64,000 bases of DNA from Kaistia dalseonensis (lineage in GTDB: Bacteria; Pseudomonadota; Alphaproteobacteria; Rhizobiales; Kaistiaceae): the NCBI RefSeq assembly GCF_030814715.1, contig NZ_JAUSVO010000004.1:434001-498000 (forward strand), read 5' to 3'. The notes under the pieces are model-generated. The model did not search any database, was not told the origin of the DNA, and saw nothing but the letters and a program-made list of their open reading frames with translations. The translations under genes and the position numbers were made by a program. Below are positions 19,053 to 56,711 of the stretch, in pieces. Numbering within the stretch: the stretch's first letter is position 1; each line of letters opens with the position of its first letter.

Positions 19053-19287
19053 ACGGCCCAATATCCATTTGGATGGCTTGGAATCGGCTCGAGGCTGTCA
19101 ATCGGGCGCGGGACGCAAACCCCGCCATCTTCAAAAATCAACCCGCGTCACCGCACCCCGGGACCAAATACCTAGGTCGCTTTGTAGACGTCCTGCTTGT
19201 CGTCGAGAGGCAGGGCATTCCCCTGCCCAGCGCCAAGGCATTGCCTGCGCCTGTTCGGGGCCTTGGATCGGCTCTCGCCAAGCCCCT

Positions 19288-19677: not shown

Positions 19678-20159
19678 AATTAAGTACTTGTTTTTTATTA
19701 GATTTTTTTACTTTTGGAGGCTGCGGCAGATAGTGCCGTTGTTTCCAGAGCTTGCAGGCCGCCGATCTTGGGCCGGGTCGGAAGAGACTGCTTTTGCCTG
19801 CTCTTCACGTCCCCGTCTCTAGCGCGACTTTCAGCGGTACCCGAATTGCGAATTGGGGGGCGACTTTTTGCACGACTGCACGGCCGCCCCTTTCCACTTC
19901 ATATGCCCGCAAGCCGCTTTCCTGCCGACAGGATTGGCCTGCTGCGTCGATCGGTTCGAGCAGACGCGCCTCTTTGCCTTGCGTGCAATTGGGACCGACG
20001 AGTCGGAGGGCTTCTAGTGTGGCGCAATGCCAACTGGATTTGCCACAGCAGTCCACGAGATGCTGGCGCCAAACATTGCGATGGGTGTTGCAGCCTCGGC
20101 CGCTTGGCTGCTGTTCTGCAAGAAGATAGGCGTGCGGGGGCAACCAGAATGGCGCGGGA
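19678..20159. other. No recognisable gene
   Basis: About 480 bp begin with an A/T-rich tract (TTTTTTATTAGATTTTTTTAC) and then G/C-rich sequence. No frame resembles a known family. It separates repeat copy A from the recombinase tail. Confidence 0.45.
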
Positions 20160-33941: not shown

Positions 33942-34763
33942 TCATAACTGGACTCTGTTCTCTCTTTGGTCCGTTTTGGACCGAGCCGCAAACTCGTTCG
34001 AGGTGAGGCCGCGCAGGCTGGTGTGCGGCCGGTGATGGTTATAGTCGTTCCTCCATTCTTCGGTGATGCGGCGTGCCGATGCCAAGCCGCGGAACAGATG
34101 TTCGTTGAGGCATTCGTCCCGGAAGCGACCATTCAGGCTTTTGACGAAGCCGTTCTGCGTCGGCTTGCCGGGCGCGATGTAGTGCCACTCGACGCGGGTA
34201 TCTTCCTGCCACTGCAGGATCGCCCGCGAGGTCAACTCGGTGCCGTTGTCGGAGACGATCATCAATGGCCGGCCACGTGCCTCGGCGATGGCGTCCAGTT
34301 CCCGCGCCACCCGCATGCCGGAGAGCGACGTGTCGACGACGAGCGTCAGGCACGCGCGCGTGAAGTCGTCGACTACCACCAAGACCCGGAACCGCCGGCC
34401 GTCAGCCAGCATGTCTGAGACGAGGTCCGGGCTCCACCGCTGGTTCGGCCCCTGCGACAGCGCCATGGGCGCCCTTGTGCCCAGCGCCCGCTTGCGGCCG
34501 CCGCGCCTCTTCACCGTCAACCGCTCCTCGCGATAGAGCCGGAACAGCTTCTTGTGGTTCAGCTCGATGCCTTCCCGCTTCAGCAGGATATGCAGGCGCC
34601 GATAGCCAAACCGGCGCCGCTCAAGCGCCAGTTCTTTCAGTCGCCCCCGCAGGGCGGCATCGTCCGGTCGCCGTGACGCATAGCGATAGGTCTTCGGGTC
34701 GAGCCCGATCAGCCCGCAGGCCCGACGCGGCGAGTAACGCTTCTCTTTGATCGCCCAGGTCAC
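33942..34763 (-). CDS. IS3-family OrfB transposase
   Basis: The 273-residue frame has the HTH_21 start ([20 protein letters not shown]) and an rve integrase core with Asp in [10 protein letters not shown], Asp in [10 protein letters not shown] and Glu in [10 protein letters not shown], the DDE triad. The C-terminal [14 protein letters not shown] is typical. The frame appears complete. OrfA is frameshifted, so normal OrfAB production is doubtful. Confidence 0.92.
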
Positions 34764-35051: not shown

Positions 35052-35172
35052 CCCGTCTCCTTCCGACGGGGGCCAATTCAAACCGAAGGCATTGCAGGGG
35101 GCAAGGTCACCCTTCATTTACTCCGCCCGCTTACCTGGATGAGACCTCGACACGAACGAAAGGCTTGATGCT

Positions 35173-36000
35173 CTAGAGCCGGGCGATGAAGTCGAGGACA
35201 GCGCCCGGCGCGAAGCGGTAGGTGCCGTCGATATCGGAGGCGACGACAGCTCCCGCCTCGTCCCGGCCCGTCACCTCGACGCGGTACTCCTTCGCTACCT
35301 CGAGTTCATAGCCGCCGGCCTGTGGGAAGCGGTTGCGGTCGAGCAGGAACACCGAGCCGATGATGGCCCAGAAGCCGCGCGGCGCGACGATTCCGGCCAG
35401 TTGCGGCGGGCTTGCCTCCGTCACTGGTCCAGCCTCGGTGACACGCACATAGACCTGGCCGACCGCGCTACGGCGCTGGACCTTGACAGAAATCCAGGCC
35501 TTGTCCTTCTTCGGCCTCGGCCGGATTTCGGCTTCGCTCGGCGCCTGCCGGTAACCGAGCGCGACGAGGACGCGGTAGACACCGGCGCTGCCGCCCGCGA
35601 GGATCAGCGCGGTGAGCAAATGCGACAGCGGCCCGCCACCCTCGCCCGAGACGAGGCCGTATTGGCTGAGCATAGTCTGCACTACATCGATGTTGAACGC
35701 CCATACGGCGAGCGCCGAGACGGCGATCATCACCAGTGTCTTGACGCCGCGGCCATAGAAGAGCTCCAGGAACAGCCGCCAGTTGAAGATGACGGCCAGG
35801 GCGGATTCTATCAGCACGGCCATGACGAAGAGCAGCGTCAGCGCCTTCAACGAGACGGCGTAGAAATTGGCGCTCCCCATCGTGACCCAGGCCGAGGCGG
35901 GCGGCGTCGGCGTATCGGCGAGCGCCGCGCCGGTGAACCCCGCCACGACGACCAGCGCGAGGGTAAGGGCGGCGATGGCGTCGCGGCTCTTCCTGGGCAT
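35173..36000 (-). CDS. Membrane protein of protease cassette, unknown function
   Basis: The 275-residue protein starts at ATG 36000 with GGGAG upstream. It has a signal-like N-terminus (AALTLALVVVAGFTGAALAD) and then hydrophobic segments (AVSLKALTLLFVMAVLIESA, TLVMIAVSALAVWAFNI, HLLTALILAGGSAGVYRVLV). A C-terminal soluble part with beta-rich sequence ends GTYRFAPGAVLDFIARL. I recognise no family. It ends the leftward cassette and follows the MBL gene by 23 bp, suggesting it anchors or signals for the other products. Confidence 0.72.
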   Translation of the reverse strand: MPRKSRDAIAALTLALVVVAGFTGAALADTPTPPASAWVTMGSANFYAVSLKALTLLFVMAVLIESALAVIFNWRLFLELFYGRGVKTLVMIAVSALAVWAFNIDVVQTMLSQYGLVSGEGGGPLSHLLTALILAGGSAGVYRVLVALGYRQAPSEAEIRPRPKKDKAWISVKVQRRSAVGQVYVRVTEAGPVTEASPPQLAGIVAPRGFWAIIGSVFLLDRNRFPQAGGYELEVAKEYRVEVTGRDEAGAVVASDIDGTYRFAPGAVLDFIARL

Positions 36001-36023
36001 CGAAGGCTCCCTTTTGGACGTCA

Positions 36024-37553
36024 TCAAGCGAGATCGAACTCGACCCAAAGGCCCGCGCCATGCCGGATCGTGCGGATGGACCCCGACGGCGAGAAGTTCG
36101 GCTGCCCGTCGGGATCCGCTACCCAAACATCGTCGGCGCGCACGACACGGCCGGCACAGCGCTCCTTGAGCGCCGTGAGGATCTTGTCATAGGGCATGGC
36201 GCCCCAGTGGACGTTGGCCGCATCTTTCTGGTTGGTCGGGATGAATGCCGAGAGATCGGGGCTCGTCATCAATTCGAGGCCCTTGGCGCGCGCCGTGGCG
36301 TTTTGGCTGCCGTGATGGCCGACCTTGTAATAGACCGTCCGGCCGAGCAGATCGGGCCCGGTGACGACGGCGCCGTCAACCTGCCATTTCGTGTCCAGCC
36401 ACGACAGCCAGTTGCCGATCTGCGCGTCGGCGGCGAAGAGCAGGACGCGCTTCGTGTCGGTAAACTCGAAGGCGAGCACGAGGCTGGTATTGTTGGTCCT
36501 GTCGTCAAGCTGCATTGCGAGGTCGGCAGAGACGCCGAGCCAGTCCATGTCGATCCGCCGCCAGGATTGATCTCTGGCTTCGGGATCAGGCGCCTTCGCC
36601 TTTCGGCGGCCTCGTGCTGGCGCCGTCTCGACAGACAGCGGCCCGAAATAGCGCTCGCGCGCGAAGTCGGCTATCTCCGGGGCGATATCGTCCGGCGGTG
36701 AGACCGGCGAAGCGGCCAGTCGCGCGAGATCGCTGCCGACATTGGGATCGAACGGCGCGGCATAGTCGAAGGTCTTGCTGCCGGCCGGATCGGTCGCCGC
36801 GAACGCCGACGACAGGGCTCGCTCAAGCGGCCATCCCGGACCGGCGCCCATGGCGTACATCTCGCTCGCCCGCTCCGTCAGCCCCAGCAGCGCCGGATCG
36901 CGCGGCGGGCCGAGGACATAAATCCGCAGGCCGGGGACATCCGTTAACTCGATCGGTGGGTCGCCGGGCTCGAAATAGCGCACATGCCCCTTGGCCAGCG
37001 CGGCAGCGGCGTCGCGCGAGGCGCGGACGCGCTCGCCTTTGACGCCGAAATTGAAGCCGAGCAACGCATCGAGCCCCGCGTGCAGGCCCGCAAGGTGCGG
37101 GTTGAGCGGGCCGGCCGCGCCGAGACGCTGGCTGGACGATTGCAGCGCGGCGAGGGCCTGCTGCTTGAACTTGTCAAGTTCGTTAGCCTGTGCGTCCAGA
37201 GGATCCTCGGTCCAGGCCATCCAGACCTCGCCGACCGAAAAGCCTTTGAAGGCGTCCGCCGCGGTCAGGAAGGCAGAGACGTGGTCCGTATGCTCGTGCG
37301 TGACGACGACGACGTCGAGGCGGGCCTTGGTGACCGCCGCGATATCGGCGACGACCTTGGCCATCTTGGCCGAGCCGCCGGAGACGGAGGAATGGACGCC
37401 GCAATCGATCAGCATCCAGAAATCGCCGCCGCCAGCCTTGGGGAAGCGCAGCAAATGGCTGTCGCCGATGCCCTGGCAGTAGTGGCGCACCGTGACCACC
37501 CCACCGATGGAGGGTGCCTTGCCGACCTTGGCCGGTGTCGCCTTCTTAGCCAT
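36024..37553 (-). CDS. ComEC-like metallo-beta-lactamase-fold hydrolase
   Basis: The 509-residue protein from ATG 37553 shows the MBL metal motif VTHEHTDHVSAF and an earlier Asp in MLIDCGVHSS. A late KVGHHGSQNATA is typical of the ComEC/Rec2-like MBL branch. That branch includes DNA nucleases in competence and stand-alone effectors in conflict systems. No membrane segment is evident. The start overlaps the protease gene stop by 8 bp (ATGGCTAA), so translation is coupled. What it cleaves is unknown; a nuclease or phosphodiesterase role is inferred from family only. Confidence 0.82.
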   Translation of the reverse strand: MAKKATPAKVGKAPSIGGVVTVRHYCQGIGDSHLLRFPKAGGGDFWMLIDCGVHSSVSGGSAKMAKVVADIAAVTKARLDVVVVTHEHTDHVSAFLTAADAFKGFSVGEVWMAWTEDPLDAQANELDKFKQQALAALQSSSQRLGAAGPLNPHLAGLHAGLDALLGFNFGVKGERVRASRDAAAALAKGHVRYFEPGDPPIELTDVPGLRIYVLGPPRDPALLGLTERASEMYAMGAGPGWPLERALSSAFAATDPAGSKTFDYAAPFDPNVGSDLARLAASPVSPPDDIAPEIADFARERYFGPLSVETAPARGRRKAKAPDPEARDQSWRRIDMDWLGVSADLAMQLDDRTNNTSLVLAFEFTDTKRVLLFAADAQIGNWLSWLDTKWQVDGAVVTGPDLLGRTVYYKVGHHGSQNATARAKGLELMTSPDLSAFIPTNQKDAANVHWGAMPYDKILTALKERCAGRVVRADDVWVADPDGQPNFSPSGSIRTIRHGAGLWVEFDLA

Positions 37554-40500
37554 CCTCCGGACCTCCATCATGGGTGTGCAGCAGCGCGAAGGGCTCACCG
37601 GGCGTTTCGCCGAAATAGAGCTGGCGGAGCGGCGAAAGGGCGTTGCCGGACGCCGTCTCGCGCTGCCGTTCGATGCGGCTGGTGCTCGCGCTGTTCTTGA
37701 CGATGCTGTAGCGGACCTCGCGCTGCCCCTCGCGCGGATCAAGGATCAGTGTCGTGCCGCCACGGAACCAGAACCAGTGCCCGGCCTCGTCGTCCGGATT
37801 CAGGGGAACACGGCGCCGTTGCTGGATGGTGGCGACGAACTCGGTTCGGAAAGAACCGTCCGGCGCGACACGGCGGGCCGGACGCACGCTGAACACCTCG
37901 AACGTTGTGCTGCCGGGTTCCGGTTGTTTGACGATGTTGCCCTCGCTGTCATAGCGGGGTACGTCCGGCATCAGTCCGAACTGCACCAGAAGCGCCGGAT
38001 CCTTGTCGAACTCCTGTTTGAGCGCCCGCCACATCGACCAGCGGTTCTTCTCGTTCAGGGCAAAGATCTGCGAGCGGTCGAGAACGCGGTCCCAGCCCAG
38101 GTCGAGCTTGGCCAGCACCTTGTCGAGCCAGGCCGGTTTCGGATCATCGAGCGTGCCCCAGGCGAGCGTTTCCTCCGATACGGTGCGCACATCGCGCGGC
38201 AGCAGGCCGCGGCGGCGGAACGCCTCCATGAAGGCGACGCGGTAATAGAAGCGGTCATTGGGGACGAGATCGATATCCGCCGTAATCAGGGCGCGCAAAT
38301 ATTCGCCGAAGGTGATGTCGACCGCCGGGCAATAATCCAGTGCGCGAATGCACATGCGCAGGACGTGCCGGGCCGCCTTGCAGCTTTCGGCGGTCAGGGC
38401 GTCGACGAGATCGGGATGCAGCGCGCCCTGGGGCAAGATGCCCGTGCCATTGGTGGCCAGACGAATGAGCAGCGCGGTTCGCCGTTCGACGATGCGCAGG
38501 AACGCGTCATAGACCGCGGAAACGAGGATCGAGCCGCGCGCATGGACCTCGGTCGTCGTCGCGTAGTCGAGCCCATGCACCTCCGCGCCGAGATAGTCGC
38601 GCAGCGGCCCGCCGCGCTGCGTGCCCTCGCCGAACTGCTTGGCGAGACCGCCGAGCAGCTCCGCCGCACTCAGCTTCCCTCCCGCCTGCGCGATCTGGAA
38701 GCGCACCAGCTCGGGAATCGCGAAATGCTGGAACAGTGCCACGATGTCGGCGAACGCCTCGTGGAACGCCGGCACGTCCGGATTCGACGCCTCCTGCAGA
38801 CGGCGGTGCAATCCGTCGAGCAGGGCGTGCGACATCTCGTGGACGACAATGTCGCTTGAGAGGCAGGCAAAGACCATCGTCCCGGGCGCCGTCGCATCGT
38901 CGTCCTTTGGCTGGGCCGGGAAATAGCCGAACAGTAGCGCGACCTTCTCGGGACTGTAATAGGCATTCTCGGTCCGCAGCGCATGCGGATAGAGCCGGAG
39001 CCGAGGCACTTCATAGCTGGCGGTGCGGTCGTCGCCGTCGGCGTCCTTGGTCACGACCTGGCGCGGCGCCCACAGCGCCTTGCGGCCGAGTGCTTCCTCG
39101 AAATGGTCGATTGTCGTCATGGCGACCGCATAGACCATCTGCTGGTGAAAGCCGGGATTGCCCTCCGACGGTGGCCAGCCGTCCTGCGCAAGCAGCCTCG
39201 GCTCGTCGAGATTGACCGGGTCGTAGATGCGGTTCGAGGCCGGGTCGATGTCGACCACCTCCAGATACTCGCCAACGGGGCCGGGTCTCAGCTTCTCTTC
39301 CCAGCGCACCGTCAGAACTGTCTCGTTGACGACGACCGAGTCGAGTGACTTCGCTACGCTCGGATCGAGCGCGTAGACGCGAAGGCGTCGCTTTGGCGGC
39401 GGCAGCGCCTTCTGCTTGCGCTTGATCGGTGGCGTGGGCATCGCACCTGCCGCCGGCGCCGGCGCCTGCGCGCGACCGAGCGCCTGCTCAAGCGCCGCCT
39501 TCAGCGGCGTCGACGGATTGCCGGCATCGAGCGCCGCCTCGAGATAGCGCCGGCGCGCGGCGGCCGGAATCTGGTCATCCGGCAGGTCCGGATCGCCGAT
39601 CGCCTCGTCGACGGCGGCGACGCGCTGCGCCATCTGCGTCAGTTCGAGCGCGAACATCGCGCCCCTACCATCGCCGGCCCCGGCGGCAAAGCTTGGATCC
39701 GTGCCGAGCAGAATGTCGAGCCATCCGAGGCTCGCCTTGGCCGGCGGCAGCTTGACGAGATCGTTGGCGGGGACCGGCTGATGCTGCAGCGCCGCGGCGG
39801 CCTTCATCACACCTTGGCCGATCTTCTGTAGCGTCTCGGCCGCCGTCATCGCCGCGGTGTTCTTGGTCGCCGAGGTGAAGAGCGCGCGGCGCGCCGCCTC
39901 GACCCACATCCACGCCTCGGGATATTGCGCCAGCGCCTGCCGGTGCTCGGCCAGCCAGAGCGCCGTGGCCGCCGCGATCTGCGGCGTCGCCGAGGACGTC
40001 CCGGCGCCGTCCATGTCGACGACCTTGCCGCAATCGATCGTCGCCCAGGGCACGTTCGGCGTATAGGCGCCCAGCGCCGTCTGCATCTTGCTGTCCGGGC
40101 CGTAGCTGCCCTGCATCGTGCCGGCTGCAAGGCCGGCATAAGCCCTTCCGTCGGCCATCACGCCGCAAGCGGCGAGAACGCGCCGGTAGCGGGCGGGATA
40201 GACGATCGATCGTGGCATAGGCGAGCCGGCATAGTTGTTGCCCGCAGCCGTCACCATGACCATTCCAGATTCGTAGGCGAGGTTGATCGCATCGACGAGT
40301 GCGGCCGAGGTCAGGCCGCCCATGCTCATGGAGAGCACATGGGCGCCCTGCCGGATCGCATAATCGATGCCCTGCACCATCGTGCCTGTCGAGAAGCGGA
40401 CGACCCAGTCGGCGATGCGGATCGGGATCACGCGGGCATAGGGCGCCCCGCCGATGAAATCGTTGAAGCCCGGCCAGCTCGGCGAGGTGCCGTCGAGCTT

Positions 40501-41195
40501 GTTGCCGGCGAGGAGCGCCAGCGTCGCCGTGCCGTGGCCGCGATTGCGGATCGCGCCCATGCCGGTCGGCGTATGATCCGAGGCATCTCCCGGATCGGGA
40601 TCGCCGTCGACGAAGCTGCGCTGATGGGCCGTATCGAGGTTTATTGGCCGCGTCACGTGCTGGGGATCGTAGCCCGTATCGAGATGGGCGATGACGATCT
40701 GCGACAGCTTCTGCTCGAAAGCGGGGCCGAGGGCGGCACGCGCCTTGGCAAGTTCCGAATAGCCATCGCCGAAATTCCAGGCGATGCCGGGGCCGACGGC
40801 CTTGCCGCCGGAGGGGTCCTGGTCGTCGAAAGCGCAGCGGTCCGCGGCAGAAGCCGCTGCGGCTCCCGTCACCTCGCGCGGCACGGGGAGCCATTCCTGC
40901 TGGATATCGGGCTCGACGAACTGCACATCGGCCGCGGCGGCCGCGGCAAAGCCCTGGCCGGGCGAGAGCAGCTGGTGGGCGTCGTCCCAAGGATTGCCGC
41001 CGCCCCCCCCCTCGGCGCCGAAAGCTGAAGCCAGGCTGAACCGGCTGAAGGCGCGAGACCTTTGCCCTTCGCCCCTGGCGGTATAGTCAGGATCGTCCGG
41101 ACATCGACGCCGGCCGCGCCGAACGCCTTTCCGGTTGCCGCGACAAAGCTTTTCCCATTGCCGCGTACTTTGACCAAGAGCCGTGTATTCGCCAT
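37546..41195 (-). CDS. Dual subtilisin (S8) / gluzincin-type protease, frameshifted at G9 tract
   Basis: Coding begins at ATG 41195 (GGGAGG seven bases upstream) with a propeptide-like MANTRLLVKVRGNGKSFVAA. It shifts at the G9 tract (41003-41011) and continues to 37546, about 1,215 residues if the shift is repaired. The S8 triad is visible: Asp in IAHLDTGYD, His in RGHGTATLALLAG, Ser in GTSSATPQIAA, with Asn in TAAGNNYAG. The C-terminal half has a zinc-protease motif HEMSHALLDGL and a downstream Glu in HEAFADIVAL, a gluzincin arrangement. Two unrelated protease centres in one chain are unusual. No Sec signal is obvious. It lies between a cell-wall hydrolase and the MBL gene. One extra G (or two fewer) restores the frame. 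Confidence 0.75.
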
Positions 41196-42812
41196 CGCCG
41201 TGCCTCCCGGACGATTTCGCTCGACTTCAGATCCTGCCGCCGCGAGAGCCGCTGCCGGCGCGCCGCAAACCCCTCGCTTCAGGAACGCCACTTCGAAATG
41301 CATGCCGTCCTTGCGGTTGTCATAGTGCCCGCCCCACCAGAAGCCCCAGTCATTGGCGAGCGGCACGAGTTCGCGCACGGAGCCCTTCTCGCCGACAAGG
41401 GCCGGCCGATGGCCGAGCTTGTTGAACTTCTCATTGATGTCGAAGGCACTACCGAAGGCGTGATTGCTGAGATTGGTGCGGCTGCCGCGCACGAAACGGG
41501 GCACGAACGAACCGTCATAGATCAGCACTCGGTCGAGCAGCTCCGCCTTCTCCCATGCCGCCCACATGCCCTGCAGCTGCGCGGCCGCCAGGCGGTGGAA
41601 CTGCATCGTCTGCGGCGCCTTGGAACCTAGCGCCTTGCGCAGCTGCGGGATCGGCACGGCGATGATGTTGTCCCTTTCCCAGCTGCCGAGGATGCGGATT
41701 GCCTCAAGATTGCCGGGCTGCGGCGCCGACACGAAATCATAATGGCCGAACAGCGCCTCGCGCTGCGCGTTGGTGACGAGCGGCGAGAAGCCCGGACGCG
41801 GCGGAAAATTGGAGCTCGTATCGTCGTTCGCGGGTTCCTCGATCAGCTCAAGGCCGATCGACGCCGCCTCCAGCAGCGTTGCGCGCCCCGCGACGCCATC
41901 GGCCGTGAGTTTCTCCCGCTTCTGGAACGCCTTGGTCGCATCGCGCGTATGCTCGCCGAAACCGCCATCGAGGGCGCCCGGATCGAATCCCTGCCCTCTC
42001 AGGAAGGTCTGCCAGGCGAGGATGCGCGGTCCCGACATGCCGATCCGCAGTGCCGAAAGCGTCGCCGGCTGCGGCGCGTCGGCGGTTGGCAAGGCGGCAA
42101 TCCCTGCGAGATGAAGGGAATTCGCGGCCATAATGCCGCCCGTCACGCCGGGCCCGCCGGCCATCGCCAAGGGCGCGGGGGCAGCGGCAAGCGCCGAGGC
42201 AGCAACTGCTGCCGGGGCGGCGGAGGGAGCCAGAGCCGCTTCTGCCGTCATCGGGAAGGTCTTGGCGATGTCGAGCGCCTTGTTCCAGCGATTGACCAGC
42301 CCCTTCCAGAACTTGCTCTTCTCGTCGCGATGGACGACGTCGCGCTCATAGGCTTCGCGTGCCGCGCGCAGCTTCTTCAGAAGCGCCGGGGCATCGCTCT
42401 CCGCCGCCGTCTCGGCGTCGCGGGTCGTCTTGCCGACGGCGCCGTCATCGGCGACGCCGAGCGCCCGCTGCAGGATGCGGGCACCACCGCCGGCGCCGCG
42501 GTTGAAGACGCAGTCGCGCAGGTAGGATTCGATCGCCGGGATCCGGGTCCAGGCGGCGGCACGATCCGTGTCCTCGGCGATGAAATCGGTCGCGAGTGCT
42601 TCGGCCTCGGCGAACTTCTTCTGTGCGAGCAGCGCAACCAACGCGTCGGCGACGGGCTTGTTGTAGCGCTCATTGATGCCGCCGACCTCATAGGCACCGC
42701 CGCCATCGCCGGCGGGGAGCTTATAGACCTTGAGATTTCCGTCGCGGTCACGCCTAGCTTCGAAATCAAGTATCGTCGCCGCCATGCGGTGGCGCTGTTC
42801 TGACGTCGCCAT
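40869..42812 (-). CDS. Cell-wall hydrolase: secretion-activator-like, PG-binding and M15 peptidase domains
   Basis: The frame encodes 647 residues from ATG 42812 (GAGGGGGG upstream). Residues 1-130 resemble zliS-type secretion activators/GH108 (HRMAATILDFEARRD). Residues about 250-320 are a peptidoglycan-binding repeat (MSGPRILAWQTFLRGQGFDP, GVAGRATLLEA). Residues about 340-515 are an M15_4/VanY-like D,D-carboxypeptidase (SNHAFGSAFDINEKFN, KDGMHFEVAF) with the zinc His/Asp set. The frame has no stop before the protease start at 41195, so the last 108 residues are really the protease propeptide read up to the G9 shift. A lost stop or a natural fusion are both possible. The Glu expected for GH108 catalysis is uncertain. 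Confidence 0.8.
   Translation of the reverse strand: MATSEQRHRMAATILDFEARRDRDGNLKVYKLPAGDGGGAYEVGGINERYNKPVADALVALLAQKKFAEAEALATDFIAEDTDRAAAWTRIPAIESYLRDCVFNRGAGGGARILQRALGVADDGAVGKTTRDAETAAESDAPALLKKLRAAREAYERDVVHRDEKSKFWKGLVNRWNKALDIAKTFPMTAEAALAPSAAPAAVAASALAAAPAPLAMAGGPGVTGGIMAANSLHLAGIAALPTADAPQPATLSALRIGMSGPRILAWQTFLRGQGFDPGALDGGFGEHTRDATKAFQKREKLTADGVAGRATLLEAASIGLELIEEPANDDTSSNFPPRPGFSPLVTNAQREALFGHYDFVSAPQPGNLEAIRILGSWERDNIIAVPIPQLRKALGSKAPQTMQFHRLAAAQLQGMWAAWEKAELLDRVLIYDGSFVPRFVRGSRTNLSNHAFGSAFDINEKFNKLGHRPALVGEKGSVRELVPLANDWGFWWGGHYDNRKDGMHFEVAFLKRGVCGAPAAALAAAGSEVERNRPGGTAMANTRLLVKVRGNGKSFVAATGKAFGAAGVDVRTILTIPPGAKGKGLAPSAGSAWLQLSAPRGGAAAILGTTPTSCSRPARALPRPPRPMCSSSSPISSRNGSPCRAR
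41003..41011 (-). other. Nine-G homopolymer interrupting the protease frame
   Basis: The coding strand has AGGGGGGGGGC, nine G. Upstream of it the frame of MANTRLLV applies; downstream the subtilisin frame is offset so that ten or seven G would join them. Such tracts slip readily, so this may be a phase-variable switch, a fixed mutation, or a sequencing error. Confidence 0.75.
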
Positions 42813-42966
42813 TCAGCCCCCCTCTGAACAGTCACCCCGAATATTTCTTGGTTGTGATCATTAGATCGTAACTCGTCATAATAGTAGAGGAATACACGGG
42901 GCGCTCTTGAGACTGCGACAGTGACGCGCCACTGCTCTTTAGTCCGGCTGCGGTTAGCGCCTCGGT
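42813..42966. other. A/T-richer region upstream of protease cassette
   Basis: About 150 bp, richer in A/T than its surroundings (GTTGTGATCATTAGATCG and nearby), lie directly before the cell-wall hydrolase start. It is the likely promoter region of the leftward cassette. No specific operator can be named. Confidence 0.35.
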
Positions 42967-43054
42967 GGGTTTGATCTGAGCCCCGAAAAATGGACCGTTT
43001 TCAGTTGAAGTGTTCCGCGGCAAAATCTCCTGGCTGGGAGGAGCGGAAGACGAT
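42967..43054 (+). mobile_element. IS3-type left-end fragment
   Basis: This stretch, with GCCCCGAAAAATGGACCG and CTGGCTGGGAGGAGCGGAA, matches the leader just before the OrfA remnant at 10315. It ends at the border of the 188-bp MITE-like copy, so only the IS leader survives here. Confidence 0.45.
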
Positions 43055-43242
43055 TGTGAATAGGCGCGGACTGGAGGCCTCGGCTTGGGTCGACCTGAAT
43101 ATCCAATTTTCATTATTTATTTCGAGTACAGCCGGGGTCATGATCGGCGCCGATCGAGGCCCAGCCAGACTTAGGCTTTCTGAAGTATCGTCAATGAGTT
43201 GAAGCCATCTGGTCTGGGGTCCCGCTTCGGCGCCTATTCACA
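43055..43242 (+). repeat. 188-bp MITE-like element, copy 2
   Basis: Perfect 13-bp terminal inverted repeats: TGTGAATAGGCGC at the left and GCGCCTATTCACA at the right. It is the better-preserved partner of 10569-10755 and has no coding capacity. Flanks show no clear target duplication. Confidence 0.75.
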
Positions 43243-43366
43243 GCCGGCTCTTTGGATTGCCCGACCGACCCTTCTGGAAGCGTATCCAGCCTGGCGGATT
43301 CGTATAGACGAGCGGCTCATCATGATCCTCAAACCCCGCCATCGACGCCTCCCTGGCTGGCACCGG

Positions 43367-43560: not shown

Positions 43561-43655
43561 AAACTCGGGGCAATCCAAAATTCCGCCGCGATGAGCTGCT
43601 CGTCGTCGGAAGTGCGCATGTTCTCGGCGTTGGAGCGCCTACGGTCTGGCCAATT

Positions 43656-44045
43656 CCGAATTCGACCATCGGATACCGCAAAGCGGCGATGCTTGCCCGC
43701 TTAACGGCAAGGCAGCACCGGATAACGACAGTGCCGAACCGGCATGTGGCAAAGCGATTCCGCAATCGCGCAAGCGGATCCCGCAAGCTTGCAGTCTGAT
43801 CCCGGCTAACGACAACGCAATCCCGCCAAACGACAATCGATTTCCCCTGATAGCGGCTGAGAACACCCTTCCAGATGTCGAAAAATCGGCCCATCATTTC
43901 ACAAAGATATTCAGGTAACGCACGGAAATCGCGTCACTTTCCAGCGGGCACGCGACCCGAGGTCGCGAGGAAGGCCCTCTCTGGCGATTCTGCTCGGAAC
44001 AGGGAAGCCGGCAGAGACGGGTTCACGGCGGACTGCGCCCACCGC
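43656..44045 (+). repeat. 390-bp dispersed repeat, copy B
   Basis: It aligns base for base, without net indels, to 19288-19677 in the same orientation. The tail halves are the more conserved; the iterons have drifted. Here it lies only 413 bp after the MITE-like element, while copy A lies 8.5 kb after the other MITE-like copy. Confidence 0.75.
43657..43845 (-). repeat. Nine degenerate 21-bp iterons, copy B
   Basis: The nine 21-mers are in the same register as copy A, with forward-strand cores such as TTAACGGCA, ATAACGACA, CTAACGACA and CAAACGACA at 21-bp spacing. The reverse strand carries TTGTCGTT. See copy A for the transposon-end interpretation. Confidence 0.6.
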
Positions 44046-44103
44046 CACAGATTTCTCTTAGCTATTGATTTTTTGGCTTGGCTGCCAATTTGCCTGAACT
44101 TAT

Positions 44104-46482: not shown

Positions 46483-47478
46483 CTATCCGCCGAGTGCCGA
46501 CATGTGGCGTGCGAGTTCCGGCCGGCCGCGCTCGATCCGGAAATCATGGCCGCGCGGCTTCGTGCGGATCGCGCCGTCGATCGCGGCGTGCAGCACTTCG
46601 TCCGCCTCGGAGCCGCGGAGCGCGGCGCGGAGGTCTGTCTGATCTTCCTGCCCGAGGCAGGAGTAGAGCGTGCCGGTGGCGCTGACGCGCACGCGGTTGC
46701 AGCTCTCGCAGAAGCTGTGGCTCATCGGCGTGATGAAGCCGATCCGCCCGCCGGTCTCGCGGATGCGCGCATAGCGAGCCGGACCGCCGCTGCGTTCCGC
46801 CATGTCGGTCAACGTCCAGCGGCTCTCGATGAGACGGCGCAGCGTCGTCAGCGGCACATACTGGTCGGTCCGATCGGCGCCGACATCACCGAGCGGCATG
46901 GTCTCGATCAGGGTCAGGTCCATGTCGTTGCCATGCGCGAAGGCGATGAGATCGTGGATTTCCGTCTCCGTGATCCCCTTGAGTGCCACGGTATTGAGCT
47001 TGACGCGCAGCCCCACCTCCCGGGCCGCGCGAAGCCCGTCCGTCACGACGCCCAGCGTGCCGCGGCGCGTGATGGCGCGGAAGCGGGACGGATCGAGCGT
47101 GTCGAGCGACACGTTGACCCGCCGGACTCCGGATGCCGCCAGAGCCTCGGCATGGGTCGCAAGCAGCGTGCCGTTGGTGGTGAGCGTCAGCTCCTGCAGG
47201 CGGCCGGCGGCAAGGTGGCGAGACAGACTACCGAACAGCGTCATGATGCCCTTGCGCACCAGCGGCTCGCCGCCGGTGATGCGGATCTTGGTGACGCCAC
47301 GCGCGATGAAGGCGGCGGCGAGGCGATCGAGCTCCGCGAGGCTGAGCAGATCGCGGCGCGGCACGAAAGTCATGTCGTCGGACATGCAATAGACGCAGCG
47401 CAGGTCGCAGCGATCCGTCACCGAGAGCCGGAGATAGGTGATGCGGCGGCCAAAGCCGTCGGTAAGCGTACAGCTCAT
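46483..47478 (-). CDS. moaA: GTP 3',8-cyclase MoaA
   Basis: The 331-residue radical SAM protein has [10 protein letters not shown] (N-terminal 4Fe-4S), GGEPLVRKG and the C-terminal cluster [20 protein letters not shown]. It ends in Gly-Gly (MSALGG), the tail needed for activity in MoaA. It performs the first step of molybdenum-cofactor synthesis, converting GTP to 3',8-cyclo-GTP. The start overlaps the moeA stop by 4 bp. Its place in the nar operon fits the Mo-bis-MGD demand of NarG. Confidence 0.95.
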
Positions 47479-48737
47479 CGTCCGTATCCCCCTGATGTTC
47501 CCGGAGCGCCAAAGGGGAGCACCTCGACCAACGCACCCGGCATGAGGCCTGCGAGCGGAGGCACGACCGCCACGGCATCGGCGGCGGCGAGCGGCGCCAG
47601 GCGATGGGAGCCCTCTGGCCCGGCCTGCTCCGCGATCAGCCGACCCTGGCGATGGGAGAGGTGGACCGGCACCAGCGCGGTGCGCCGGTCGACTCGCGCG
47701 CCCTGGGCGAAAGCCGCGGCCGCGAAGAGCGGTGACCCGGGTGGTCGGCCGGCGAGCGCATCGATCATCGGCCGCAGGAAGGCGAGGGCGCCGCAGGCGA
47801 CGGCTTGGGGATTGCCGGGGAGGCCGACGAAGATCGCTGCGCCGATCCGGCCGAGCGCCAGCGGCTTGCCGGGCTTCATGGCGACCTTGACCACATCGAG
47901 CGTGCCGCCGCTATCGGCGACGGCATCGCGGACGTGATCGCGCCCGCCGACCGACATTCCGGCCGTCGTAACGACGAGATCGCAGCCACGCGCCGCGATC
48001 GCAAGATTCGCCGCGATCGCGGCGCGATCGTCGGGAACGGTCACGAGTTCGATTTCGGTGCCGGGTCCGCCCAGCAGCGCGGCGAGCATCGGACCGTTGG
48101 AATCGTGAATCGCGCCGCCGGAAAGCATCGAGCCGGCGGGGCGCAGTTCCGATCCCGTCGTCAGCACCGCGATGCGGATCGGTGCCGCGACGCACACGGC
48201 GCCGATGCCGAGCGCCGCGAGCAGGCCGATCTGCGCCCAGTCGAGGCGGTCGCCGGGATGATTGACCACTACGCCGGCTGGAACATCCTCCCCGGCGCGC
48301 CTGATATGGCTGCCGGGCGTCGGACCAGGCTCGAACAGGATCCGCCCGCCGATCCGCCGTGTCGCCTCGATCATCACGACGGTGTCGGCGCCTTCGGGAA
48401 GTGCGCCACCGGTCATCACGCCATGGGCCGTGCCGGACGCGAGCCTCGCCGGTGGGTCGCCCGCCTCAGTGGTGCCGCAAAGAGGCAAGGCTGCAGCATG
48501 GCCGCCGCCGTCGCCGAGACGGATCGCATAGCCGTCCATCGCCGCCTGGTCGAAAGGCGGCAACGCATGCGGCGCTACGACGGGGCGGGCCAGAATGCGC
48601 CCGGTGGCGGCCGCGAGCGGGACGATCTCGTGCCGTGCCGTCGGCCGCACCATGGCGCGCGCCAACTCGCGGGCCGCGTCGAAGCCGGCGAGCACGTCAT
48701 GCGGGCGATGGCAGCAGTCGGGGGCTGGCATGCTCAT
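47475..48737 (-). CDS. moeA: Molybdopterin molybdotransferase MoeA
   Basis: The 420-residue protein from ATG 48737 has MoeA hallmarks: [28 protein letters not shown], the MoCF-domain stretch [10 protein letters not shown] and [13 protein letters not shown], and LPGNPQAV. It inserts molybdate into adenylylated molybdopterin. It overlaps the preceding small gene by 4 bp and moaA by 4 bp, so the operon is tightly coupled. Confidence 0.94.
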
Positions 48738-49021
48738 GACGCCACCGAGGCGGGCGGGAGGGATCGCTCCAGAATGGCGCGCATCGCGGCGAGGCCGGGG
48801 TCGGTCGCGCGGCCCATGATCCCGACGAGCTGCAGCCATTCCTCATCCGAGGCCGTGTCGAGGAACCCGCGTACGGCCGACGCGACCACCTCCGCGGGGG
48901 TCCTGCTTGCAGCAGCGGCGGCAGAGTCCAGGCGGTTCTGCAAGGCCGGCGCCTCAAGCGCCGACACGAGGCGCTCCGAAACCCCGGGCTCGTCCAGCGA
49001 GGCGATCAATCGTCCGAACAT
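48734..49021 (-). CDS. Small nitrate-reductase-operon protein, unknown function
   Basis: The 95-residue protein (MFGRLIASLDEPGVSERLVS, TPAEVVASAVRGFLDTASDE, EEWLQLVGIMGRATDP) is predicted all-helical with no cysteines or membrane segment. It lies between the isomerase and moeA genes, 7 bp after the former and overlapping the latter by 4 bp, which supports that it is real. I do not recognise a family. By position it may assist assembly of the nitrate reductase. Confidence 0.7.
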   Translation of the reverse strand: MFGRLIASLDEPGVSERLVSALEAPALQNRLDSAAAAASRTPAEVVASAVRGFLDTASDEEWLQLVGIMGRATDPGLAAMRAILERSLPPASVAS

Positions 49022-49028
49022 GATGACC

Positions 49029-49937
49029 TCACTGGACCAGAGGCGAAGCGGCGCCATCCATGGCGATGCCGCGAATATCGGCCCGGCCCACCAGGATCGC
49101 GATGTATTGCGCCGTCGCCTGCCGGCGGACATGCGCGTCGAGATAGGCTGCGATCGCGTCACGCACCGCCTCGAACGGCAGGACGCGTCCTTCGACACGG
49201 CGATTGAGCCGGATGAGATGCACGCCATAGCGCGTCTCGACCGGCTCCGAGATCGCTCCGGGCGCCAGGCCGACGAGCGCGGCCTCAAACTCCGCCGTCG
49301 TGTCGCCGGGCCCGATCTGGCCGAGGCTGCCGCCGAGCGCGGCGGACGGACAATCGGAATGCGCGCGGGCAAGCGCCGCGAAGTCTTCGTGCCCGGCCAG
49401 GAGCCTCGCCCGCAGCGACGTCGCGGTCTGGCGGGCTGCGGCGAAGTCGGCGGCATCGTCGCGGCGGGCGGCGAGGAGGATGTGATCGGCCTCAAACAGC
49501 GGCGCGTTGGTAAAGCGCTGCCGGTTGTTGCCGTAGAAACGGCGCAGCGTCACCTCGTCGGCTTCAGGGACGGTGATCTCGCGCTCCGTCAGGCCGCGGA
49601 TCAACGCTTCCTCCCGAGTCTCGACACGTCCCTCGGCATCCGTGGCCGGTTCGGCCGCGAGTTCGAGGCGGGCCGCCTCCTGCAGCAGGAGTTCGCGGAT
49701 GACGAGCGCACGGGTCGCGGCGCGCCAGCCCTCGCCGGGATTGGGGGCCGGGAAGTTCTGCACCTCGGCGGCGATCGCCTTGCGGCTGATCGGCACGCCG
49801 TTCACGCTGACCGCCGGCATGGCGACCCGCTCCGGTGATGGTGCGGTCGGAACGGGCGCTGGCCCGTGCTCGTGCGGGTGCTGGTCGGCGTGGCTGCTCG
49901 CGGCGGCATGGTCGATGACAAGGGTCGCCATGGTCAC
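49029..49937 (-). CDS. Parvulin-type peptidyl-prolyl isomerase
   Basis: The 302-residue protein has an SurA/NifM-like N-terminus and a parvulin domain at about residues 140-245 (EADHILLAARRDDAADFAAA, HSDCPSAALGGSLGQIGPGD, FEAALVGLAPGAISEPVETR, GVHLIRLNRR). No signal peptide is visible, so it is likely cytoplasmic, like NifM. The start is His-rich (HAAASSHADQHPHEHG), which might bind metal. Its overlap with narI by 4 bp points to a role in folding or maturing the nitrate reductase. Confidence 0.9.
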   Translation of the reverse strand: MTMATLVIDHAAASSHADQHPHEHGPAPVPTAPSPERVAMPAVSVNGVPISRKAIAAEVQNFPAPNPGEGWRAATRALVIRELLLQEAARLELAAEPATDAEGRVETREEALIRGLTEREITVPEADEVTLRRFYGNNRQRFTNAPLFEADHILLAARRDDAADFAAARQTATSLRARLLAGHEDFAALARAHSDCPSAALGGSLGQIGPGDTTAEFEAALVGLAPGAISEPVETRYGVHLIRLNRRVEGRVLPFEAVRDAIAAYLDAHVRRQATAQYIAILVGRADIRGIAMDGAASPLVQ

Positions 49938-50710
49938 TCTCCCTGCGGGCGCGTGGTGCGCGCCGGTCCGGCCTGAACTGCGGGGTGCGCAGCGGGCAAC
50001 GAGGCGCGGCGCTTGCCCGGGTCCGCAAAGCGCGTGCGCACGACCTGATAGCCGGGCCGGCCGAGATACCAGACCGGCGCGCTCCAGATGTGGACGAGGC
50101 GCGTGAACGGAAAGACGAGGAAGATCGTCATCCCGAGAAGCAGATGTGCCTTGAAGATGGGACTGACGTCGGCGACGTAGGCCGAAGCGTCAGGCTGCAA
50201 TGTCAGGATGCCCTGCGCCCAGTTCATGAACTTCACCATCTCATGGCCGTCCATATGGCCGAGCGAGACGAAGATGGTGGAGAGGCCGAGGGTGAGTTGC
50301 ACCCACAGGAGCAGCAGGATGGCGATGTCGCCGAAGCTCGACGTCACACGGATGCGCGGATCGAACAGGCGGCGATGCGCGAGCATCGCAATGCCGATGA
50401 AGCAGGCGATGCCGGCGATGCCGCCGACCGTGATGGCGAGGCCCTGCTTGAAGCTGTGGCTGATGCCGAGCGCGCCGAATACCCAGATCGGGGTCAGCAG
50501 GCCGACGAAATGGCCGCCGAAGATGACGAGGATGCCGACATGAAAGAGGTTCGAGCCCCAGCGCAGCTGCCGCCGGCGCAGCAATTGCGACGAGCCCGTC
50601 TTCCAGGTGTACTGCTCGCGGTCGAAGCGAATAAGGCTGCCGAGCAGGAAGACGGTGAGGCAGAGATAGGGATACCAGCCGAAGACAAGGTGGTTGAGAT
50701 AGGCGGACAT
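49934..50710 (-). CDS. narI: Respiratory nitrate reductase gamma subunit (cytochrome b)
   Basis: The 258-residue membrane protein from ATG 50710 has five hydrophobic segments and haem-ligand histidines (NLFHVGILVIFGGHFVGL, KAHLLLGMTIFL, FTRLVHIWSAP). It anchors NarGH at the inner membrane and oxidises quinol. It begins 11 bp after narJ and overlaps the isomerase gene. Length and motifs are normal. Confidence 0.96.
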   Translation of the reverse strand: MSAYLNHLVFGWYPYLCLTVFLLGSLIRFDREQYTWKTGSSQLLRRRQLRWGSNLFHVGILVIFGGHFVGLLTPIWVFGALGISHSFKQGLAITVGGIAGIACFIGIAMLAHRRLFDPRIRVTSSFGDIAILLLLWVQLTLGLSTIFVSLGHMDGHEMVKFMNWAQGILTLQPDASAYVADVSPIFKAHLLLGMTIFLVFPFTRLVHIWSAPVWYLGRPGYQVVRTRFADPGKRRASLPAAHPAVQAGPARTTRPQGE

Positions 50711-50721
50711 CGATCGCTCTC

Positions 50722-51420
50722 CTATGCGCCGGCTGCGCCGCGCCGGACGTCGCGGCTGCCGGCGCGCATCTGGATCCTGAGGCGGTCGACGGAGCATCCG
50801 TCGCTCGCGTCGCCGGGGCCGAAGGCGACGGCGGTCTCCTCCCATTCGGCGTCGAGGGCCGCGAGGTCGCCGTCCCGATCTTCAGGCGCAATTTCGCCGG
50901 CAAACTGAATGCTGCTGCCGGCCAGAGCGGCCACCGCCGCCACGACGGCCGCGTAGCCCGAGTCACGACGCGCCAGCCTTTCGCAGAGCGCCTCGAGAAT
51001 CGGCAGCGTGTTGGCGAGTTCCTTCCGCGCCTCGCCTTCAGGACGCGTCGACAGATATTCGAGGAAGAGCGGCAGATAATCGGGCAGTTCCCCGGTCGAA
51101 AGCACCATGCCGCCCCGCTCATAGAGGGCTGCCAGATCGACCATCGCCTGGCCGCGGTCCCGGCTCTCGCCGTGGACATGCTCGAACAGATGCAGCGAGA
51201 GATGCCGGCCGCGATCGAAGAGTTCGACATAGCGCTCCTGCACCTCGATTGGATCGCCAGCGGCGAGCGCATCGAGGAACGGCCAGAGCGCATCGAGCCG
51301 ACGACGCGGGACCAGTTCCTCCGCCGTCAGGACGTTCCGGATCTCGGGCACGGCCGCCTGCAGCACCGGCGAAGGATAGGAGAGGAGCGCCGAGAGCGCC
51401 TTGAAGGTCGTCGCCATCAT
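50722..51420 (-). CDS. narJ: Nitrate reductase molybdenum-cofactor chaperone NarJ
   Basis: The 232-residue protein (TFKALSALLSYPSPVLQAAV, HLSLHLFEHVHGESRDRGQA, LPDYLPLFLEYLSTRPEGEA) matches NarJ, the chaperone for cofactor loading of NarG. Its ATG overlaps the narH stop in ATGA, typical of nar operons. Confidence 0.95.
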   Translation of the reverse strand: MMATTFKALSALLSYPSPVLQAAVPEIRNVLTAEELVPRRRLDALWPFLDALAAGDPIEVQERYVELFDRGRHLSLHLFEHVHGESRDRGQAMVDLAALYERGGMVLSTGELPDYLPLFLEYLSTRPEGEARKELANTLPILEALCERLARRDSGYAAVVAAVAALAGSSIQFAGEIAPEDRDGDLAALDAEWEETAVAFGPGDASDGCSVDRLRIQMRAGSRDVRRGAAGA

Positions 51421-52943
51421 GCGATCTCCATCGGATTGCGAGCCTTGCCCGTCTTGTTCGTTGCGAAGAGATTGAGGTCGGTCTCGCCACCCGAGCAGCC
51501 ATTGCCGAAGGAGAAGCCGCAGGAGCCGCGCGCCTCGTAGGCATCCTCGCTCCATTCGCGATGCGCGGTCGGGATGACGAAGCGATCCTCGTAATTGGCG
51601 ATCGCCATCACCTGATACATGTCCTCGATCGCCGCGCCGGTGAGGCCGACCTTCTCGGCGATGCGCGGATCGATATGGCCGTCGACCGTCTTTGCCCGCA
51701 TATAGGCCCGCATGGCGAGCATGCGCTCGAGGGCGAGCGCCACGGGCTCCTCCTTGCCAGCCGTCAGCATGTTCGCGAGATAGCGCAGCGGAATTCGCAG
51801 CGAGCGGACATCCGGCATGACGCCGTCCACGCCCATGCGCCCCGACGCGGCGGCCGACTGGATCGGCGACAGCGGCGGCACATACCAGACCATCGGCAGG
51901 GTGCGGTATTCGGGATGGAGCGGGAAGGCGACTTTCCACTCCATTGCCATCTTCCAGACCGGGGAATGGCGTGCCGCCTCGATCCAGGTCTCCGGCACCC
52001 CGTCGGCACGCGCCTGCGCGATCACCGCCGGGTCGTTCGGATCGAGGAACAGCGAGAGTTGTTCCTCGTAGAGATCCTGCTCGTTCGCCGTCGAGGCAGC
52101 GGCCTCGATGCGGTCTGCGTCATAGAGGATCACGCCAAGGTAGCGGATGCGGCCGACGCAGGTCTCCGAGCAGACCGTCGGCTGACCGGACTCGATGCGC
52201 GGATAGCAGAAGATGCACTTCTCGGACTTTCCCGAAGACCAGTTGTAATAGATCTTCTTGTAAGGACAGCCCGAGACGCACATGCGCCAGCCGCGGCACT
52301 TGTCCTGATCAATGAGGACGATGCCGTCCTCCTCGCGCTTGTAGATCGCGCCGGACGGGCAGACCGCGACACAGGCCGGGTTCAGGCAGTGCTCGCAGAG
52401 CCGCGGCAGGTACATCATGAAGGTGTTCTCGAACTCGCCGTAGATCTCCTTCTGGACGCCTTCGAAATTGATGTCCTTCGAACGCTTCTCGAACTCGCCG
52501 CCGAGGATCTCCTCCCAGTTCGGGCCCCATTCGATCTTCTCGATCCGCTCCCCGGTGATGAGCGAGCGCGGCCGTGCCGTTGGGAAGGCCTTCGATTCCT
52601 TGGCCGTTTGAAGATGCTCGTAGTCGAAGGTGAACGGTTCGTAATAATCGTCGATCTCGGGGAGGTCCGGATTGGCGAAGATATTGGCGAGCACCCGCCA
52701 TTTGGCGCCGATGCGCGGCTCGATGCGACCGCTCTTCTTGCGTCGCCAGCCACCGTTCCACTTCGCCTGGTTCTCCCATTCGCGGGGATAGCCGACGCCG
52801 GGCTTGGTCTCGACATTGTTGAACCAGGCGTATTCGACGCCCTCGCGATTGGTCCATACGTTCTTGCACGTCACCGAACAGGTGTGGCACCCGATGCACT
52901 TATCGAGGTTCAGCACCATTCCGATCTGGGCGCGGATCTTCAT
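51417..52943 (-). CDS. narH: Respiratory nitrate reductase beta subunit
   Basis: The 508-residue protein carries four iron-sulfur motifs: CIGCHTCSVTCKNVW, CEHCLNPACVAVCPSGA, CRGWRMCVSGCPY (a Trp in place of one Cys, giving a 3Fe-4S cluster) and CIFCYPRIESGQPTVCSETC. It conducts electrons from NarI to NarG. It overlaps narG by 4 bp. All cluster ligands seem present. Confidence 0.97.
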   Translation of the reverse strand: MKIRAQIGMVLNLDKCIGCHTCSVTCKNVWTNREGVEYAWFNNVETKPGVGYPREWENQAKWNGGWRRKKSGRIEPRIGAKWRVLANIFANPDLPEIDDYYEPFTFDYEHLQTAKESKAFPTARPRSLITGERIEKIEWGPNWEEILGGEFEKRSKDINFEGVQKEIYGEFENTFMMYLPRLCEHCLNPACVAVCPSGAIYKREEDGIVLIDQDKCRGWRMCVSGCPYKKIYYNWSSGKSEKCIFCYPRIESGQPTVCSETCVGRIRYLGVILYDADRIEAAASTANEQDLYEEQLSLFLDPNDPAVIAQARADGVPETWIEAARHSPVWKMAMEWKVAFPLHPEYRTLPMVWYVPPLSPIQSAAASGRMGVDGVMPDVRSLRIPLRYLANMLTAGKEEPVALALERMLAMRAYMRAKTVDGHIDPRIAEKVGLTGAAIEDMYQVMAIANYEDRFVIPTAHREWSEDAYEARGSCGFSFGNGCSGGETDLNLFATNKTGKARNPMEIA

Positions 52944-56683: not shown

Positions 56684-56711
56684 GGGTGTGGTCCCTTGTT
56701 TCGCGTATGGA

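What the first reader, a model, noticed from the sequence alone, without database searches (positions are those of the whole stretch)
35173..42812. Undescribed-looking cassette: cell-wall hydrolase, dual protease, MBL hydrolase, membrane protein
Four leftward genes with overlapping ends or short gaps encode a secretion-activator/PG-binding/M15 hydrolase, a chain with both subtilisin and HEMSH zinc-protease centres, a ComEC-like MBL protein and a membrane protein. The block is isolated between an IS3 element and MITE/iteron debris, so it is mobile cargo. Combining proteases with an MBL nuclease-like enzyme recalls conflict, defence or toxin-release systems. The exact set is not one I recognise.
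Basis: partly seen in the sequence, partly recalled or inferred. Interest (0 to 1): 0.7.

Follow-up and report, generated by a model that had tools for sequence, protein, structure and literature searches.

The report
Protease–nuclease defence module with endolysin
Four linked bacterial genes look like a self-destruct module in which a double protease would switch on a DNA-cutting enzyme and a phage-like wall-dissolving enzyme; the protease–nuclease core recurs in distant bacteria with interchangeable membrane- or wall-damaging partners.

Summary
The four genes are real. A congener (G821) carries the same cassette, 89% identical over window 35111-43054, between unrelated flanks; dN/dS is 0.08-0.21 for the four genes. 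The window copy has a frame break near the protease start and lacks the hydrolase stop.

The stable part is a pair: a thermolysin-type metalloprotease (fused to subtilisin in 14 of 51 loci), then a ComEC-type metallo-beta-lactamase (MBL) enzyme directly downstream in 46 of 51 loci, in Alpha- and Betaproteobacteria, Bacteroidota and Deinococcota. Partners vary: patatin, Tle1/DUF2235, PLD or LCAT lipases, or phage-endolysin-like wall hydrolases. The membrane protein goes with wall hydrolases (7 of 9 such loci, 4 of 42 others; not significant tree-aware).

Best reading: a relative of the 2025-described proteolytically activated MBL pro-nucleases (trypsin- or caspase-partnered in Hachiman, AVAST, Lamassu, Canu), with another protease type and an envelope-damaging partner. 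In the window version an endolysin-like enzyme and a possible holin-like protein would add lysis.

Nothing was tested at the bench; sensor and cleavage steps are inferred.

The parts
41266..42812 (-). M15-type peptidoglycan hydrolase with two PG-binding domains, endolysin-like, no N-terminal signal found; reading frame runs on to 40869 in this copy
   Evidence: Pfam; PHROG endolysin families (best phrog_2649 2.7e-19), but the strong matches cover its wall-binding part and only a weak one (0.0041) the M15 part; hydropathy; G821 copy 512 aa with its own stop, aa identity 97%, dN/dS 0.08
41003..41011 (.). run of 9 G at which the protease reading frame breaks in the window copy
   Evidence: uninterrupted ORF in the congener G821
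37546..41196 (-). S8 subtilisin-like + thermolysin-type (HExxH...EAxxD) double protease; start MANTRLL inferred, ORF as it stands 40926-37546
   Evidence: Pfam S8; motifs; invariant H196/E197/H200/E223/H295 in 41 aligned relatives; weak profile match to neutral protease/thermolysin, best E 0.012; dN/dS 0.14 for the part after the G run
36024..37553 (-). ComEC-type MBL hydrolase (predicted pro-nuclease) with two insertions, 121-187 and 227-340
   Evidence: Pfam; HxHxDH in 41 of 41; PDB profile best hit competence protein 9ic4 2e-14; AlphaFold model mean pLDDT 70.4 with 227-340 mostly below 50; Foldseek best 9ic4 ComEC MBL domain 2.5e-11; PADLOC LmuA 1.3e-11
35173..36024 (-). membrane protein: signal-like first helix, three further transmembrane helices, C-terminal beta-rich domain; possible holin-like partner
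   Evidence: hydropathy finds 3 to 5 segments in six homologs, 5 in this one; low-confidence model, pTM 0.40; no Pfam, PADLOC or PHROG hit; dN/dS 0.21
35111..43054 (.). extent of the cassette shared with congener G821
   Evidence: 7956 columns, 89.3% identity; the only other match is a repeat from window 19280-19716
43048..43249 (.). MITE-like repeat at the right edge (23-nt inverted ends, 83% complementary)
33942..34763 (-). IS3-type transposase ORF on the left (family name recalled)
   Evidence: rve, rve_3 and HTH_21

Best explanation
The cassette is one form of a mobile, modular programmed-cell-death (probably anti-phage) system. Its core is a cytoplasmic protease of thermolysin type, here fused to a subtilisin, plus a ComEC-type MBL enzyme that is most likely a DNase held inactive by insertions. 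On an unknown trigger the protease clips the MBL enzyme and releases its nuclease activity, as shown for trypsin- and caspase-partnered relatives of such nucleases. Exchangeable neighbours add envelope damage: a lipase in many variants; in this variant a signal-less endolysin-like wall hydrolase that needs a way through the inner membrane, for which the membrane protein is the candidate. Shown here: gene linkage, transfer as a unit, purifying selection, catalytic motifs, core pairing, partner exchange. Inferred: cleavage, DNase activity, trigger, holin role, defence function.
For: MBL directly downstream of the metalloprotease in 46 of 51 loci; 3 of the 5 exceptions (L058, L074, L075) have a caspase gene beside it instead. 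Distance matrices of the two proteins correlate (r 0.90, n 41, 0 of 2000 permutations as high). The same four genes in G821 at another site, dN/dS 0.08-0.21. MBL is closest to the ComEC nuclease domain by profile and by fold and scores to PADLOC LmuA/Avs1a/RTasMBL. A lipase or wall hydrolase was labelled near the core in 30 of 51 loci; partner type changes at least 14 times on the protease tree among the 34 labelled rows. Wall hydrolases beside the core match phage endolysin PHROG families in 6 of 7 proteins tested, and none of 10 such proteins has an N-terminal hydrophobic stretch. Membrane protein in 7 of 9 wall-hydrolase loci against 4 of 42 others (Fisher 9e-5; 1.5e-4 without the two loci fetched through it). 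Membrane protein and protease in the same genome in 6 of the 8 genomes (of 297) that have the former (expected 0.43, p 2e-7). Experimental precedent: PMC12799240.
Against: No sensor is recognised in the four genes. The window copy has a frame break at the protease start and may not work. Local context is metabolic. 17 of 51 loci got no partner label; not every neighbour was searched. The membrane-protein/wall-hydrolase link is not significant when shared ancestry is counted (5 pairs same way, 1 opposite, 1 no difference, p 0.22). One of the 9 wall-hydrolase loci (L093) shows only wall-binding domains. Copies of the membrane protein occur beside metabolic genes away from any core. The window hydrolase's endolysin matches rest mainly on its wall-binding domains. 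The MBL model has modest confidence and the insertions' distance to the active site was not measured. The thermolysin assignment rests on motif spacing and a weak profile hit (0.012).
Confidence: 0.5

Rival explanations
1. The MBL/protease core is the only functional unit, and the lipases, wall hydrolases and membrane protein are independent passengers of mobile regions.
For: Partners vary; 17 of 51 loci have no labelled partner; membrane-protein copies away from the core exist; tree-aware test not significant.
Against: In the window and several relatives the partner gene overlaps or abuts the core on the same strand; all four genes are under purifying selection as a block; wall hydrolase and membrane protein stay together in differing gene orders (L042, L051, L144).
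Confidence: 0.25
2. A lysis module for release of particles (gene transfer agents, phage-tail bacteriocins), as with LypABC in Caulobacter, rather than defence.
For: Endolysin-like enzyme + membrane protein; a CARD-NLR-like peptidase system is needed for GTA lysis in Caulobacter (PMC13236601, abstract only).
Against: No phage structural gene among the 16 window ORFs searched with Pfam (the rest of the window was not searched); 21 of 51 loci are labelled with a lipase and only 9 have a wall hydrolase; 9 of 19 annotated relatives have a defence-named gene nearby.
Confidence: 0.1
3. Contact-dependent antibacterial effectors (T6SS type: Tle1, PLD, patatin, wall hydrolases) with processing enzymes.
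For: Partner families overlap T6SS effector families; Pfam names the DUF2235 family T6SS_Tle1-like.
Against: TssK (PF05936) was not found in 10 of 14 genomes searched, the window's included, while the control search rang in E. coli.
Confidence: 0.05
4. Ordinary proteolysis genes gathered by chance beside an IS element.
For: Metabolic neighbours in the window.
Against: Core adjacency in 46 of 51 loci; the same cassette at another site in a congener.
Confidence: 0.05

Closest known systems
Gated MBL pro-nuclease + trypsin-like protease pairs (HamMAB Hachiman, Avs1, Lamassu, DRT) and Canu caspase-nuclease, Tuck et al. 2025 (PMC12799240; abstract, Results, Discussion and legends read)
   Same: ComEC-like MBL enzyme with insertions, beside a protease gene, transferred between systems; in Canu the nuclease is downstream of the protease, as here
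   Different: Protease here is thermolysin-type, in 14 of 51 fused to subtilisin; MBL mostly longer (399-564 aa; HamM is 42 kDa); lipase or wall-hydrolase partner. Their main text has no hit for metalloprotease, subtilisin, patatin, phospholipase or peptidoglycan, but it mentions proteases of 'other diverse families' (fig. S2), which I could not see
'System 3' NucA-endonuclease/trypsin systems, Kaur et al. 2020 (PMC7159879; section 32 and passages read)
   Same: Mostly alphaproteobacterial; endonuclease + peptidases incl. S8, proposed proteolytic cascade, lysozyme-like effectors that may attack peptidoglycan
   Different: Nuclease is NucA (HNH), protease trypsin; no MBL or thermolysin-type core in that section. 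Annotated trypsin-like and DNA/RNA non-specific endonuclease genes lie near relatives L059 and L090
Lamassu (LmuA/LmuB)
   Same: MBL scores best to PADLOC LmuA; an SMC-like ATPase scoring to LmuB (3.9e-24) precedes the core in L045, and an AAA ATPase does in L053 by annotation
   Different: No LmuB hit among the four window proteins
Phage lysis cassettes (endolysin + holin)
   Same: Signal-less endolysin-like enzyme plus a small membrane protein
   Different: Membrane protein matches no PHROG family
LypABC, Caulobacter (PMC13236601; abstract only)
   Same: Peptidase-based immune-like system coupled to cell lysis in an alphaproteobacterium
   Different: CARD-NLR-like ATPase; no MBL or endolysin set in the abstract

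Membership tests
Gated MBL pro-nuclease/protease pairs | MBL fold of ComEC type with complete metal site | tested here: met
Gated MBL pro-nuclease/protease pairs | two insertions that cover the active site | tested here: inconclusive
   Stretches 121-187 (helical) and 227-340 (disordered; identity 0.25, occupancy 0.64) in model and alignment; distance to the active site not measured
Gated MBL pro-nuclease/protease pairs | partner protease trypsin-like or caspase | tested here: not met
   S8 + thermolysin-type
Gated MBL pro-nuclease/protease pairs | proteolytic activation of DNase | not testable with these tools
   needs proteins
Lamassu | SMC-like LmuB in the operon | tested here: not met
   none of the four window proteins hits LmuB; LmuB-like gene in Hymenobacter L045
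AVAST type 1 | STAND NTPase | tested here: not met
   no such domain in the four proteins
Kaur 'System 3' | NucA endonuclease + trypsin core | tested here: not met
   no NucA or trypsin hit in the four proteins
T6SS effector module | T6SS in the genome | tested here: not met
   TssK not found in G000
Phage lysis cassette | endolysin | tested here: met
   PHROG endolysin families, for the window protein mainly through its wall-binding domains; M15 domain by Pfam
Phage lysis cassette | holin | tested here: inconclusive
   membrane helices but no known holin family; fold search of this model could not be run
M4-like (thermolysin) peptidases | HExxH, Glu ligand in EAxxD, catalytic His (pattern recalled) | tested here: met
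   invariant in 41 relatives; profile match weak; fold not modelled

The most novel reading that the evidence does not exclude
A bacterial immune cascade in which one double protease switches on two zymogens at once, a gated DNase and a captured phage-type endolysin whose exit is controlled by a new holin-like protein, so that the infected cell destroys its DNA and then lyses on its own schedule; in sister systems the endolysin slot is filled by patatin, Tle1, PLD or LCAT lipases.
Probability: 0.25. Interest if true: 0.85.

Novelty: new variant of a known kind. Interest (0 to 1): 0.62.

Why it matters
Tuck et al. [quoted passage not shown] This family offers concrete candidates: another protease type for MBL nucleases, and lipases or endolysins as possible further substrates. 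It also suggests that hosts reuse phage-type lysis enzymes in defence. The modular layout makes the claim testable with few genes.

Tried and rejected
Viral contigs (IMG/VR): two scans found no relative of the metalloprotease or the membrane protein; one 9.5-kb record labelled 'Bacteriophage sp.' has the core (L093). Genome contigs gave one distant hit, in the S8 part. PADLOC gave no hit for the protease or the membrane protein. The T6SS reading is disfavoured for this genome. My guess that the 228-aa neighbour in L079 is a lysozyme found no support in Pfam, PHROGs or PDB and was not counted. Literature: the titles and abstract starts listed by searches (some lists cut) show no paper on this combination apart from the kin named above; supplements and bioRxiv were not available.

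Rows left out of the 51: L064 and L038-L041 (S8 part only), L002, and the class-search loci L004-L022. Four of the latter (L007, L008, L010, L021) match the metalloprotease part at 33-40% and were not followed up; nor was a short match in G422. L089, L090, L092 and L113-L120 (fetched through the membrane protein or the hydrolase) have no metalloprotease that my queries found. Of the 30 plasmid hits listed (132 records in all) I opened 23. Fragmented relatives (L051, L058, L063, L072) were used as single fragments. The set holds near relatives (L046/L054/L062, L065/L066, window/L112), so counts of loci are not counts of independent events. Partner labels come from Pfam, annotation or homology and cover only neighbours that I looked at.
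Full report
What is there. The window (G000:C4:434001-498000; its nearest named relatives are Rhizobium and other Alphaproteobacteria) holds four leftward genes between an IS3-type transposase ORF and a MITE-like repeat. Domain searches give an M15 peptidoglycan hydrolase with two wall-binding domains, an S8 protease whose second half carries HEMSH...HEAFAD, an MBL enzyme, and a membrane protein without known family. The last three genes overlap at their ends (coordinates).

State of this copy. The protease's likely start lies inside the hydrolase ORF, and a 9-G run at 41003-41011 breaks the frame; the hydrolase lacks the stop seen in a congener. The congener G821 has four uninterrupted ORFs. 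The window copy is damaged, phase-variable or mis-assembled; the data do not decide.

It travels as a unit. G821 matches the window at 89.3% over 35111-43054; the only other match between the 19.5-kb G821 stretch and the window is a repeat from window 19280-19716. Per-gene comparison gives dN/dS 0.08 (hydrolase), 0.14 (protease after the G run), 0.16 (MBL), 0.21 (membrane protein). The hydrolase has a lower dS (0.21) than protease and MBL (0.43, 0.37), which may mean separate exchange of that gene.

The stable core. I assembled 51 loci with the metalloprotease domain: the window, 22 plasmid records, 16 + 3 + 5 loci from genome searches, G821, two reached through the membrane protein (L088, L091), and one phage-labelled contig. 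The MBL gene is directly downstream in 46; of the other five, three have a caspase gene beside the metalloprotease (L058, L074, L075) and in two (L078, L096) my queries found neither. The subtilisin domain is fused in 14 of 51. Protease and MBL distances correlate at r 0.90 over 41 loci (0 of 2000 permutations as high). The pair occurs in Rhizobium, Methylorubrum, Paraburkholderia, Hymenobacter and Deinococcus among others; the cyanobacterium Kovacikia (L058) has the metalloprotease with a caspase, no MBL found. The domain is rare: 22 of 397 genomes of the order at 1e-12, 7 of 398 of the phylum at 1e-8.

What the core proteins are. In 41 relatives H196, E197, H200, E223 and H295 are invariant, the thermolysin pattern (recalled). 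The profile finds neutral protease and thermolysin weakly (best E 0.012). The MBL set keeps HxHxDH in 41 of 41. Its profile finds the ComEC competence nuclease domain (2e-14) and its model matches the same structure best (9ic4, 2.5e-11). The model (mean pLDDT 70.4) shows a helical stretch at about 121-187 and a mostly disordered one at 227-340, the latter poorly conserved (identity 0.25, against 0.47-0.60 in the stretches 20-115, 188-226 and 341-420). PADLOC scores the MBL to LmuA (1.3e-11), and in relatives also to Avs1a and RTasMBL, the systems in which Tuck et al. found protease-paired MBL nucleases (PMC12799240).

Exchangeable partners. Labels: patatin 13 loci, Tle1/DUF2235 4, PLD 2, LCAT 2, wall hydrolase 9 (L059 and L091 also have a patatin or an LCAT; L058 is an amidase-caspase fusion; L093 shows only wall-binding domains), SMC-like 2, other caspase 2, none 17. 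So 30 of 51 have a lipase or wall-hydrolase label. The 34 rows with a label need at least 14 changes of type on the protease tree. A tblastn scan of the whole loci (flanks up to about 10 kb) matched the partner queries only within 6 kb of the core; I did not run an independent background set.

The window variant. Wall hydrolases beside the core match phage endolysin families in 6 of 7 tested (L059 and L144 along most of their length at 2.3e-86 and 9.3e-84 to phrog_17001; the window protein mainly through its wall-binding domains, best 2.7e-19; L079's neighbour matched nothing). None of 10 wall-hydrolase proteins has an N-terminal hydrophobic stretch by a simple hydropathy scan; a companion PG-binding protein in L042 has one, and the L051 amidase has an internal one. 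The membrane protein has a signal-like helix, further membrane helices and a beta-rich C-terminal part (model pTM 0.40). It is present in 7 of 9 wall-hydrolase loci and 4 of 42 others (Fisher 9e-5; 1.5e-4 without the two loci fetched through it, 6e-4 if L112 is also dropped), in varying gene order. Counting only independent pairs the trend is 5 to 1 with one pair not differing (p 0.22), so ancestry may explain it. Across 297 genomes it occurs in 8, of which 6 also have the metalloprotease (16 genomes in all; expected 0.43; p 2.3e-7; 3.3e-6 without the window genome); in G216, G227 and G370 the two lie on different contigs.

Interpretation. The most economical reading is a protease-triggered cell-death module whose DNase arm resembles the gated MBL nucleases and whose second arm damages the envelope. 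The trigger, the cleavage and the order of events are inferred. Of 19 relatives with an annotated neighbourhood 9 have a gene named McrC, TIR, SIR2, CBASS, NACHT, restriction endonuclease or ThiF in the fetched stretch; the window itself lies among nitrate-reductase, MoeA and transporter genes.

Known or new. Closest is PMC12799240, whose main text has no hit for metalloprotease, subtilisin, patatin, phospholipase or peptidoglycan, though it mentions further protease families in a supplementary figure that I could not see. Kaur et al. 2020 described alphaproteobacterial NucA/trypsin systems with possible peptidoglycan-attacking effectors (PMC7159879). I therefore file it as a new variant of a known kind. 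Searches listed no paper on this combination.

Noticed in passing
43048-43249: MITE-like element with 23-nt inverted ends; pieces of it recur many times in G000 and G821, and once in congener G822.
   Followed up: partly
43583-44048: Second repeat (about 460 bp), 77-88% copies elsewhere in G000, also in G821 and G822; function unknown.
   Followed up: partly
L045 and L053 (Hymenobacter plasmids): SMC-like ATPase gene precedes the metalloprotease-MBL pair (L045 scored to LmuB, L053 by annotation): a possible Lamassu-type system with a metalloprotease.
   Followed up: partly
L058:4499-7483; L074; L075: Caspase genes, one an amidase-caspase fusion, next to the metalloprotease without an MBL gene found.
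   Followed up: partly
L059:14693-17260 and L090:2408-4541: Annotated trypsin-like and DNA/RNA non-specific endonuclease genes near relatives of the cassette.
   Followed up: no
L089:5335-10937 (Paroceanicella plasmid): Patatin, the membrane protein, an S8 protease and an MBL scoring strongly to LmuA (1.2e-46) in a row: a sister cassette in which no thermolysin-type domain was found.
   Followed up: partly
L113, L115, L116, L117: Copies of the membrane-protein gene beside metabolic genes, away from any core.
   Followed up: partly
47478-59453: moeA, nitrate reductase alpha and beta subunits and an MFS transporter to the right of the cassette.
   Followed up: no
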